A stretch of DNA of 26,819 nt from IMG/VR virus record IMGVR_UViG_3300048062_000039, positions 1 through 26,819 of that record; one strand, 5' to 3'. Of this stretch, positions 13,899 to 17,504 are shown one piece after another. Position numbers and translations under genes: made by a program. Under the pieces are notes generated by a model. That model had not been told where the DNA came from and did not search any database. It was given only the letters and a program-made list of their open reading frames with translations. Numbering within the stretch: the first letter of the stretch is position 1; every line of letters begins with the position of its first letter. Origin of the DNA: a virus.

Positions 13899-15770
13899 TT
13901 ATTCTCCTTTTAGTAAGTTAATTTCAGATTGTAAGGCTTCAATCTGTGCTTGTTGTTCTTGTATAGCTTTGGTTAAAAGAGGTACAAGTTTGCTGTGGTC
14001 TATGCCTTGATATTCAGGATTACCCTCATCATCAACTGCATCCTTTTCACCTGTAATAGCTTCAGGAACTATGTCTTGTACTTCGTGAGCTAAGAAACCA
14101 TCAACTGTTGTATCTGCATCTTCTATAAAATTAAATCTAGCTGGTTTTAATTGTGCAACTCTATCAAGAGCATTAAAGTCATAGTCTACATTTTCTTTTA
14201 ATCTATAGTCTGAAGATGTGTTGTATGTTGTAGAAGTTGTACTTACACTTATTGAACCACTTGTACCACTATTTTCAAAAAGAATAGCAGTAAATGTTTG
14301 TCCTGATGTGTTAGTGATTAATTGTGCTAAACCTGTACCATAAGCATTTTCCATTCTTAAAGATTGGTTACTTGAATCTCCAGCTATTTGTAAATAAGCA
14401 CCACTTACACCTGAACTTTTACCCACCAACAAGCTGCCTGAAGAATTAATACGCATTCTTTCAGTATTGTTAGTATTAAAGCTAAAATGTGTATTTATTG
14501 CTGTACCAATATTTAGAGCATTACCACCATTATCATATTGGAAAACTCCACCAGTATTACCACTTTCATCAAATATTTTATAACCAGCTAATCTATTACT
14601 AGTTGTATTTTGAGCTACATAATAAACATCAGAACCATTACTATCTTTAGTTGTTACATGGAGACTTCCTGTTCCTGAAGCTGTACCAATTCCAACTTTG
14701 CCTGATGTATCTATACGCATTCTTTCTGTAAGTGAAGTTGAAAAAGCTACATATCCAGCTTCCCTATTTTCAATAGTAAAGTTGTTACCGTTTAACTGTA
14801 AAGATGTTCCGTCACCAGTAGCATCACCTGTTGTTGAGTTTCTCATGTCTAGTCTAGTAATTGTTGAACTAGAACCTAAACACATTCCTTCTCCATTTGA
14901 AGGCGTTGCATTACTCGTGCCAATTCCAACGTTGCCTGAAGTATCTATACGTACCTTCTCTGAATTTCCTGCATATAAAGCAAAATCTAAAGCAGATATA
15001 CTTCCTATATAAGGGATTCCACTTCGTATACCAGCTCTCATCTGACCATAATCATTTTGAGCAAGTATTGTTTGGTTTTCACCAGTACCTGAATAATTTG
15101 CTAAAGATACGTTACCTGCAACGTCAAGCTTATTTGAGGGACTACTCGTTGAAATTCCAACATTGCCTGAAGAATCAATACGGACTCGTTCTGAGCCATT
15201 GGTTACAAATGTCATATTGCCTGATGACAATTTATTTTCAAAAGATGCATTACCAGCACCATCAATACCAATTGTTACTGTTGAAGCATTAGTGCTAGAT
15301 TTAAAAGCTAGTGTTGAGAATACTTGGGTTGATTCTAATAATGCTACGTCTGCACTTGCTGTATTGTAAACATGAAGTTTATTTGAAGGACTAGTCAGTC
15401 CAATTCCAACATTTTCACTACTATCAATAGTTATAGCTGTAGAAGTAGCATTATCATCAATACCTGTTGAAGTAAAACCTGTAAGCGTTCCAACACTTGT
15501 AATATTAGGTTGAGCTGCTGTAGCTAATGTGCCTGTGATAGAGGTATTAGCTGTAAGGGTTGTAAATGTTCCTGCTGCTGGGGTTGTACCACCAATGACA
15601 GAGCTATCTATTACTGCTCCGTCTAGGTTCATAGCTACTGAAGTACCAGTAGAACTAAATACCGCATCTAAATCATCAAGATCATTATTTAGTTTTGTAC
15701 CCCAAGTATCAGTAGATGCGCCTACTTCTGGTTTGGTTAAGTTTAAATTAGTTGTAAATGTATCTGCCAT
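13899..15770 (-). CDS. Tail fibre/spike with C-terminal S74 autocatalytic chaperone
   Basis: 623 aa, ATG with GAGGAA upstream. The N-terminus ([20 protein letters not shown]) is an anchor common in marine phage fibres. Residues 110-460 are a beta-rich shaft in which a motif like RID-S/T-SGNVGI recurs near 115, 197, 274, 352 and 440. The C-terminal domain is Peptidase_S74: SSDYRLKEN has catalytic S520 and K525, followed by the L-x-P-A-R-F-N-F core and a terminal coiled coil ([16 protein letters not shown]). In this family the chaperone trimerises, folds the fibre and cuts itself off before the Ser, here predicted between residues 519 and 520. It is the likely receptor-binding fibre. Confidence 0.92.
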
Positions 15771-15782
15771 AAAAAAATTCCT

Positions 15783-16448
15783 CTAAGCTGCGTCTTGTTC
15801 GCCTAAGTTTGTCCATGATGTACTTGGATTAGTTTGTTCTGTCCAAGTTTCGTCTGCTACTATTTGATCGGTCCAAGTCTCACCAGGAACAATAATATCT
15901 TCCCATTTTAGACCACCAACTGCATTAAATCCACTTGTTTGTGCAATTACAGATGCGCCTGTTAATACAAGCCCACCTAACGCATTAAATCCGCTGGTTT
16001 GTTCAAACACTCCTTCACCAACTACAGTAAACCTGCCTGTAGCTGTCATGCTTGATACAGATGATATTACAGATGCACTGCGGTCTATCTGTCTACCTGT
16101 TGCTGTCATATCAGAACTTGCTGATATAGTTGCAGATCCTAAGTCTATTTGTGTGCCTACTGCTGAAGCGCTAGATGTTGCTGATATGGTTGCAACACCA
16201 TCAAGTATAATTCCACCGATTGCTGTAAATCCAGATGTACCAGCAATGGTAGATGCGCCTGTTATTACAAATCTACCTGTTGCTGTAGTGTCTGAAACTG
16301 CTGCTATAGTTGATGCACCAGTAATAACAAATCTACCATCCGCTGTTGCAGACGATGTTTGTGCTATTGTGGATGCGCCAAAATGATATACAGGAGTTCC
16401 GTAATTGGACTTTCCGTATGTATATTCACCATAGCCTACTGAGGCCAT
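15783..16448 (-). CDS. Repeat protein with eight tandem 20-aa units, probable fibre/structural
   Basis: 221 aa. After a short Gly/Tyr-rich head (GYGEYTYGKSNYG), eight units of exactly 20 residues run from 24 to about 183, each like GASTIAxTSxxTAxGRFVIT. Units begin at 24, 44, 64, 84, 104, 124, 144 and 164 with no length changes. The C-terminus has three Trp repeats (ETWTDQ, ETWTEQ, TSWTNL). The regular period with Ile/Val strands and small residues suggests a repetitive beta structure, such as a solenoid or trimeric shaft. It lies between the S74 fibre (12-nt gap) and another fibre-like gene (4-nt gap), so it is probably a tail or decoration component. No enzyme motif. Confidence 0.8.
   Translation of the reverse strand: MASVGYGEYTYGKSNYGTPVYHFGASTIAQTSSATADGRFVITGASTIAAVSDTTATGRFVITGASTIAGTSGFTAIGGIILDGVATISATSSASAVGTQIDLGSATISASSDMTATGRQIDRSASVISSVSSMTATGRFTVVGEGVFEQTSGFNALGGLVLTGASVIAQTSGFNAVGGLKWEDIIVPGETWTDQIVADETWTEQTNPSTSWTNLGEQDAA
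15900..16379 (-). repeat. Eight in-frame tandem 60-bp repeats
   Basis: The stretch encodes residues 24-183 of the repeat protein as eight units of 60 bp. The phase is perfect but the DNA has diverged, so units are recognised at protein level. The unit core is G-A-S-T-I-A followed by a T-S pair and G-R-F or G-G-L. Divergence of DNA with fixed period argues for selection on protein structure, not recent expansion. Confidence 0.75.
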
Positions 16449-16452
16449 GATA

Positions 16453-16845
16453 TTAAGCTAATGTTATATCTAAATCGCCAGCGTCAAATCTGAATACATC
16501 ACCAGAGCTTACAGTTTTAGATGTTGTTAAGTTTGCGTAAGCTAATAAATTTCCGCCTGATGAAGCATCTAAAATACCAACTGCAACTACAGTTCCATAA
16601 TCTGCTGTAGCTGTTGGATATTCAATCGCAGCTGAGTTTGTTGCTGTGGTAGGATCAGTACCAGATACGGTAAATGTAGCAGTTTGTCTTGCATAAGCAC
16701 CGCCTGATACTTCTGTACCACCACCTGTATCTGTAGGTGCTACAGTATATAAAGCAACATATAATGTTGATGGTGCTGTATAAGCATTACCACCAAATAC
16801 ATGGTCTAATACTTTATCTTCTAAATAATCACTAAATCCAGCCAT
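16453..16845 (-). CDS. Small tail fibre-like protein
   Basis: 130 aa, ATG with TAGGAGAT upstream. It begins GFSDYLEDKVLDHVFGG and continues YTAPSTLYVALYTVAPTDTG, SGGAYARQTATFTVS, YGTVVAVGILDASSGGNLLAYANLT and ends SGDVFRFDAGDLDITLA. This is a very common phage family usually annotated as tail fibre protein; the DYLEDxxLDHVFG start and AGDLxITL end are its marks. It is compact and beta-rich and lacks a shaft, so it may be a fibre base, adaptor or decoration part. It lies between the adaptor and the repeat protein. Confidence 0.85.
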   Translation of the reverse strand: MAGFSDYLEDKVLDHVFGGNAYTAPSTLYVALYTVAPTDTGGGTEVSGGAYARQTATFTVSGTDPTTATNSAAIEYPTATADYGTVVAVGILDASSGGNLLAYANLTTSKTVSSGDVFRFDAGDLDITLA

Positions 16846-16853
16846 TTTATCTC

Positions 16854-17504
16854 CTAATTATTATTCCAATAATAAATCTTTTTACCAGATTTGCCATAAG
16901 TTCTTCTTCTTTGCATTAGAGAGCCTTTGCCAAATTCTGCTTTCTCTTGTTCCATTCTCATCTCTTCTAATGCTTTTTCAAATTGTGCTGTGAATAACGG
17001 CACTCTTTCATCTTCCATTAGATAGATAGAAGCGTGTTTTAAAGCACCATATAAGTAAGCATCTGGATATCCTGTGGATATAAAGTTCGTTGTATTAGAA
17101 CTGCTTAAAGCATCAATAGTGCCATAGTATGTTAATTGTAGCGTATAACTTGCATCAGGGGTAGGTGCTAATTCTAAAGTATTATCTACAAGTGCATAAT
17201 ATATTGGTTGACCAGTTACATTATTATTAGATTTTCTATAGACATCTAATGATTCTATAGACTGTTGAAATAATGGTCTAAAGTCATTTGAGGTAATTTC
17301 TACATTAATAGCTTCTAACCAGTCTGTTGGTAATGACATATATTGTGCATCTGCTGTAGCAGTAGCACGTTTAATCATATCCTTAGTTCTTAATCTTCTA
17401 TTAAATTCACCTTCTGTTGCATCAATAAAAAAGTCTAACTGGTCTGTTAAATCTGATCTATTTAAAAAATTTGCAATATTAGTTTTTAATTCATCGTATG
17501 TCAT
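16854..17504 (-). CDS. Head-tail adaptor (SU10 adaptor-like)
   Basis: 216 aa, ATG in an ATGA overlap with the preceding gene. The N-terminal half is helical (YDELKTNIANFLNRSDLTDQL, then FIDATEGEFNRRLRTKDM), a central beta section includes YMSLPTDWLEAINVEI and LELAPTPDASYTLQLTYYGTI, and a helix YLYGALKHASIYLMEDERVP precedes a charged coiled tail. This order matches the phage adaptor proteins of the SU10 type (gp4/gp11-like), which form the ring under the portal. Its place between capsid and tail genes agrees. Confidence 0.85.
   Translation of the reverse strand: MTYDELKTNIANFLNRSDLTDQLDFFIDATEGEFNRRLRTKDMIKRATATADAQYMSLPTDWLEAINVEITSNDFRPLFQQSIESLDVYRKSNNNVTGQPIYYALVDNTLELAPTPDASYTLQLTYYGTIDALSSSNTTNFISTGYPDAYLYGALKHASIYLMEDERVPLFTAQFEKALEEMRMEQEKAEFGKGSLMQRRRTYGKSGKKIYYWNNN

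What the first reader, a model, noticed from the sequence alone, without database searches (positions are those of the whole stretch)
15900..16379. Eight 20-aa repeats with perfect period and diverged DNA
The repeat protein keeps 20 residues per unit through eight units with no gaps, but units differ in sequence. This implies a structural repeat under selection, such as a beta-solenoid or trimeric shaft, and possible unit-number variation between relatives as a way to alter length.
Basis: partly seen in the sequence, partly recalled or inferred. Interest (0 to 1): 0.5.

Follow-up and report, generated by a model that had tools for sequence, protein, structure and literature searches.

The report
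Rope protein for a beaded fibre
The eight 20-residue repeats are real and most likely form the string onto which copies of a small neighbouring protein are threaded like beads to make a thin virus fibre, and related viruses lengthen or shorten the string by whole repeats.

Summary
The 221-residue ORF 15783-16448(-) has eight gapless 20-residue units (15903-16382), far beyond chance. The gene directly upstream encodes a gp80-family protein (Pfam PF23140; closest solved chain 8jou_a, "Fiber I and fiber-tail-adaptor of phage GP4"). From recall of the GP4 abstract (paper not held), fiber I is gp80 dimers strung on an elongated "rope protein". I propose the repeat protein is the rope. Support: 61 of 63 rope relatives have the gp80 gene 7 nt upstream; the other two contigs start inside the rope. 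Significant 20-residue (or 10/40) periodicity occurs in 53 of 512 dereplicated ORFs around gp80 genes, against 0 of 616 in three phage sets without gp80. 87 of 95 distinct ropes hold whole units, 6 to 18. Two near-identical viruses with identical gp80 genes carry 11 and 18 units through in-frame duplications. Not shown: rope-bead contact, units per bead, or fold; the AlphaFold2 solenoid is a known artefact for repeats. The GP4 adaptor gp77 was not found. Verdict: new variant of a known kind.

The parts
15783..16448 (-). rope (repeat) protein gene, 221 aa
   Evidence: ORF; 63 relatives in IMG/VR; dN/dS 0.18-0.65
16383..16448 (-). N-terminal module, residues 1-22, Tyr/Gly-rich
   Evidence: conserved across relatives; similar start in Sinorhizobium phage phiM5_18
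15903..16382 (-). eight 20-residue units, residues 23-182
15786..15902 (-). C-terminal Trp-rich tail, residues 183-221; Trp every 10 residues
   Evidence: tail of 19, 38-39 or 55-59 residues in most relatives; exact 10-residue Trp spacing also in unrelated ropes
16453..16845 (-). bead: gp80-family protein, 130 aa
   Evidence: PF23140 158.4 bits, cutoff 27; 8jou_a E 1.3e-12
13899..15770 (-). tail fibre with Peptidase_S74 chaperone domain, next gene after the rope
   Evidence: order kept in 56 of 63 loci, six more lack room and one has it farther off
16854..17504 (-). SU10-type adaptor protein, gene before the bead
   Evidence: PF24175 121.8 bits

Best explanation
The repeat protein is the rope of a bead-on-string virion fibre of the GP4 fiber I type. 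Its 20-residue units are consecutive docking sites for the gp80-family bead encoded just upstream; the Tyr/Gly-rich N-terminus and the Trp-rich C-terminus are end pieces that join the fibre to the virion at one end and to something distal (possibly the S74 fibre or the last bead) at the other. The number of units sets how many beads are held and so the fibre length. Shown here: the repeats, the bead homology, the fixed gene pairing, the 20-residue period around gp80 genes, and unit-number change by whole units. Inferred: rope-bead contact, one unit per bead subunit or dimer, the role of the two ends, the attachment site.
For: Bead homology by Pfam, phmmer and fold (8jou_a has 10 chains, in line with five dimers). 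gp80 gene 7 nt upstream in 61 of 63 loci found with the rope as query. Period 20/40/10 in 53 of 512 dereplicated ORFs of gp80 loci vs 0 of 422, 0 of 73 and 0 of 121 in phages without gp80 (Fisher p 1.4e-19); 34 of 55 gp80 clusters have such an ORF in the held flanks. The period persists where the profiles share no detectable similarity (window type vs Burkholderia type). In Burkholderia phage DC1 the order is bead, repeat protein, fiber-tail adaptor (gp77/8jou_D, E 1.1e-19), and BcepIL02 records all three as virion-associated. Bead dN/dS 0-0.15, rope 0.18-0.65. Unit number changes with an identical bead gene.
Against: No structure or binding datum for any of these ropes was available. The GP4 rope sequence could not be compared; the Burkholderia rope profile found no 8jou chain in the PDB. 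The gp77 adaptor family was not found in the window or 10 related records. 21 of 55 gp80 clusters show no significant 20-residue ORF in the held flanks, among them Microcystis Mvi-JY20 (L074). Sinorhizobium phiM5 marks the bead but not the repeat protein as detected in the particle proteome. Odd unit counts (7, 11) do not fit a simple two-units-per-dimer rule, and a 40-residue super-period appears in only 6 of 36 ropes.
Confidence: 0.7

Rival explanations
1. A stand-alone beta-solenoid stalk with 20-residue coils that carries the neighbouring S74 fibre; gp80 is an unrelated neck protein that happens to be adjacent.
For: AF2 gives repeated strands, core pLDDT about 70, and alignments to solenoids such as tapirin 6n2b_A (Z 16.8, rmsd 2.6).
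Against: No Foldseek match at E<=0.001; AF2 is known to invent solenoids on repeats (PMC11795689, abstract); does not explain why 20-residue proteins cluster around gp80 genes.
Confidence: 0.17
2. A trimeric fibre shaft.
For: The protein lies next to a tail fibre gene.
Against: No family hit in Pfam or PHROGs; gp80 association unexplained. Not modelled as a trimer.
Confidence: 0.05
3. A flexible spacer whose period is only a relic of duplication, with no partner.
For: Ala/Gly/Ser/Thr-rich sequence; relaxed selection (core dN/dS up to 0.80).
Against: 87 of 95 distinct proteins keep whole units; the exact period recurs in phages whose sequences share no detectable similarity.
Confidence: 0.08

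Closest known systems
Fiber I of Ralstonia podophage GP4 (PDB 8JOU; Zheng et al. 2023, J Mol Biol, doi 10.1016/j.jmb.2023.168258; paper not held, abstract recalled)
   Same: gp80-family bead; a repeat protein encoded next to the bead in Burkholderia phages with close GP4 bead relatives and here
   Different: different repeat sequence from the Burkholderia type; no gp77 adaptor found here; an S74 fibre gene follows the rope; Tyr/Gly and Trp-rich ends
Neck fibre of cyanophage A-1(L) (PMC10966104; passages seen)
   Same: bead-chain neck fibres, five per virion
   Different: its beads (gp81 trimers) join head to tail, without a rope; its gp80 is a distal tip protein and shares only the gene number
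LSH1 gp34-36 module (PMC13243795; section 16 and passages seen)
   Same: gp35 matches 8JOU_g by HHpred as reported there and is modelled as a dimer
   Different: siphovirus; the authors name no rope in that section; gp34 has poorly modelled stretches that they say may be repetitive

Membership tests
gp80 bead family (PF23140) | score above the curated cutoff, same fold as 8jou_a | tested here: met
   window gene 16453-16845: 158.4 bits vs 27; phmmer E 1.3e-12. The fold match (E 4e-6, TMt 0.80) is for the homologue in L162
GP4-type fiber I | repeat (rope) protein encoded with the bead | tested here: met
   61 of 63 loci, 7 nt apart
GP4-type fiber I | gp80 beads bound along the rope | not testable with these tools
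   read-through chain model gave no docking information
GP4-type fiber I | gp77 fiber-tail adaptor (PF23148) | tested here: not met
   0 of 11 records at E<=0.1, all possibly fragments; so membership of the whole GP4 fibre is not claimed
GP4-type fiber I | sequence relation to the GP4 rope | not testable with these tools
   GP4 was not among the rows listed; no PDB chain matched the Burkholderia rope profile as a rope
beta-solenoid | stacked coils with a confident model or a solved relative | tested here: inconclusive
trimeric fibre shaft | trimer | not tested
   no multimer prediction available

The most novel reading that the evidence does not exclude
A 20-residue rope unit is a general measuring code of tailed phages: each unit holds one gp80 subunit (or dimer), so the repeat number read from the gene predicts bead number and fibre length, and phages tune fibre reach by in-frame duplication, loss and swapping of whole units while the bead stays fixed. 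The code spans many kinds of phages and prophages of several bacterial phyla, sometimes with a lectin-like domain on the rope.
Probability: 0.4. Interest if true: 0.78.

Novelty: new variant of a known kind. Interest (0 to 1): 0.6.

Why it matters
The window's repeat protein and most ropes scanned had no informative family hit, and many gp80 genes are annotated 'head protein'. A rule linking gp80 to a 20-residue rope would name a whole class of fibres, and natural unit-number variants with identical beads (L047, L050) give a ready test of whether a phage measures fibre length by counting repeats.

Tried and rejected
Direct search of the annotated phage collection with the rope: no match. PDB search with the rope: only a chance hit to a toxin repeat at E 1.7, rejected. 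Burkholderia rope profile against the PDB: weak chance hits only. AlphaFold2 solenoid: not taken as evidence. Dimer super-period: lag 40 beats lags 20 and 60 in 6 of 36 ropes, so rejected as a general rule. Natural gp80-rope fusion: none among 254 gp80 ORFs, but two tandem gp80 proteins. A-1(L) gp80: same gene number only, rejected as a homologue on its description. Literature: searches showed no paper on a 20-residue rope code in the titles and abstracts listed; the library lacks most subscription journals, so this is not proof that it is not in print.

Full report
1. The observation. ORF 15783-16448(-) encodes 221 residues. Residues 23-182 are eight 20-residue units without gaps at window 15903-16382. 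The lag-20 self-similarity is 296 against a shuffle maximum of 37 in 2000 shuffles. Units share on average 43% of residues and 51% of bases, so the period is kept at protein level while the DNA has diverged.

2. Surroundings. The gene order on the minus strand is SU10-type major capsid protein, a 96-aa protein, SU10-type adaptor, gp80-family protein, repeat protein, S74 tail fibre, DUF7936 protein, a 502-aa virion protein. The portal is also SU10-type. The window is a 26.8-kb IMG/VR record. The nearest capsid in the annotated phage collection is that of Microcystis phage MJing1 at 53%.

3. The bead. The upstream gene 16453-16845 scores 158.4 bits with PF23140 "Podophage GP4 fiber I protein gp80" and matches 8jou_a at E 1.3e-12. 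Entry 8jou is titled "Fiber I and fiber-tail-adaptor of phage GP4"; the predicted bead of the homologue L162 matches it with TM-score 0.80 by target length. One search shows 10 chains with that sequence. From recall of the GP4 abstract (paper not held), each fiber I is five gp80 dimers linked by an elongated rope protein, and five such fibres sit around the tail vertex.

4. Pairing seen from the rope. A search of IMG/VR with the repeat protein gave 63 loci. In 61 the gp80 gene lies upstream with 7 nt between its last sense codon and the rope ATG; the other two contigs (L043, L061) begin inside the rope. The S74-type gene starts 15-17 nt after the rope in 56 of 63; six have no room and L040 has it 1.7 kb away.

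5. Pairing seen from the bead. With the annotated phages these made 254 loci with a plus-strand gp80 and 55 clusters at 75% identity. Testing BLOSUM62 self-similarity at lags 10-40 against shuffles (p<0.01), the ORF directly after gp80 was significant in 17 of 49 cluster representatives that had one of 100 aa or more: lag 20 in 12, 40 in 2, 10 in 2, 14 in 1. In other cases the periodic ORF lies elsewhere nearby; overall 34 of 55 clusters have a lag 20, 40 or 10 ORF in the held flanks (up to six members per cluster examined). Counting all dereplicated ORFs, 53 of 512 in gp80 loci are significant at 10, 20 or 40 (84 significant at any lag; 41 of them at 20). In phages without gp80 the numbers are 0 of 422 (T7- and P22-like, 15 significant at other lags), 0 of 73 and 0 of 121 (marine HTVC010P- and P-SSP7-like, 2 and 5 significant at other lags). 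Fisher p is 1.4e-19, though ORFs within gp80 loci are partly related, so this is not a strict probability. The controls cover fewer kinds of phage than the test set.

6. The period outlives the sequence. The window-type ropes match the Methylophilales/Roseobacter-type ropes by profile (95% probability, E 3.7e-8) but show no similarity to the Burkholderia type (E 0.69), which has the same best lag of 20 (z about 7). In Burkholderia phage DC1 the order is bead, repeat protein (285 aa, by eye about 11 units; its later units run to 21-23 residues), then a 92-aa protein that matches 8jou_D (E 1.1e-19) and PF23148, the GP4 fiber-tail adaptor gp77. In BcepIL02 all three are recorded as virion-associated. 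Ten bead chains for about eleven units would suit one unit per gp80 subunit, but the GP4 rope itself was not seen.

7. Unit number. Among the 151 members of the window's bead cluster, 95 distinct ropes could be measured after leaving out loci without a full downstream ORF, a group with another N-terminus, and others listed. Of the 95, 82 have cores that are exact multiples of 20 (7, 8, 10, 11 or 18 units) and 5 have six units with a one-residue shorter start; 8 are off register by 1-6 residues. Of 15 members of the left-out GYN group, 14 have exactly six units. L047 (11 units) and L050 (18 units) have identical gp80 DNA and 98.7% identical upstream 900 nt; L050 carries in-frame duplications of 180 and 240 nt at 98% and 95% identity. 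Their downstream 500 nt are less alike (69%, ungapped). They are metagenome contigs; the copies are not identical, which speaks against a plain assembly artefact. Unit-by-unit comparison of the window with L010 runs from 48% to 97% DNA identity, so units are also exchanged or diverge unequally.

8. Selection. In gapless comparisons of the window with 31 relatives (one identical), rope dN/dS is 0.18-0.65 and bead dN/dS 0-0.15. The rope is constrained but far looser than the bead. Exchange of units may inflate the rope values.

9. Ends. The C-terminal tail has Trp every 10 residues, half a unit, and in the window group is mostly 19, 38-39 or 55-59 residues long (29, 34 and 35 also seen). The same 10-residue spacing occurs in ropes of Sinorhizobium phiM5, Enterovirga, Ochrobactrum OH and others; the Burkholderia type lacks it. 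This hints at a 10-residue half-unit; its role is unknown.

10. Fold. AF2 with 26 sequences: mean pLDDT 62, pTM 0.55, core about 70, both ends mostly below 50, two or three strands per unit. Foldseek had no match at E<=0.001; the second look aligned it to solenoids. AF2 is known to give confident but unrealistic solenoids on repeats (PMC11795689, abstract and outline). A read-through chain of bead and rope from L162 folded the bead well (pLDDT 74-89) and the rope poorly (mostly 50-63) and says nothing on docking.

11. Mechanism and limits. I take the repeat protein as the rope on which gp80 beads are strung, with repeat number setting bead number. Pairing, period and unit steps are shown; contact and stoichiometry are inferred. 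The gp77 adaptor was not found in 11 records, so attachment must differ from GP4 or use a diverged protein. Rivals are a free-standing solenoid stalk, a trimeric shaft and a partnerless spacer.

Noticed in passing
L236 and L254, gp80 ORFs of 256 and 273 aa: Two gp80 domains in tandem in one protein, a natural covalent pair that suits a dimeric bead.
   Followed up: partly
L234:2392-3864, L248:5122-6675, L253:4841-6283: 20-residue repeat proteins near gp80 that also carry a Laminin_G_3 (lectin-like) domain before the repeats.
   Followed up: partly
L075:1824-2978 (Mycobacterium phage Vincenzo gp31): A minor tail protein directly before the gp80 gene has significant 20-residue periodicity and a glycine-rich C-terminus; 253 of 334 gp80-matching phage records are Mycobacterium phages.
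   Followed up: no
L243:5488-6291: Repeat protein with a 40-residue super-period, alternating unit types.
   Followed up: partly
PDB 9mt4 and 9c39 (necks of phages Bas63 and Sf14): The predicted gp80 bead of L162 resembles small chains in these necks (Foldseek E 2.5e-3 to 1.1e-2).
   Followed up: no
window 13899-15770: The S74 fibre after the rope starts like the fibre genes that follow the rope in phiM5 and ctjtQ328 (LTKPEVG.STDTWG).
   Followed up: no
L070:3402-4427 (Psychrobacillus phage PVJ1): By eye, rope-like units in front of a larger tail-protein part; the period was best at 20 but not significant (p 0.15).
   Followed up: no
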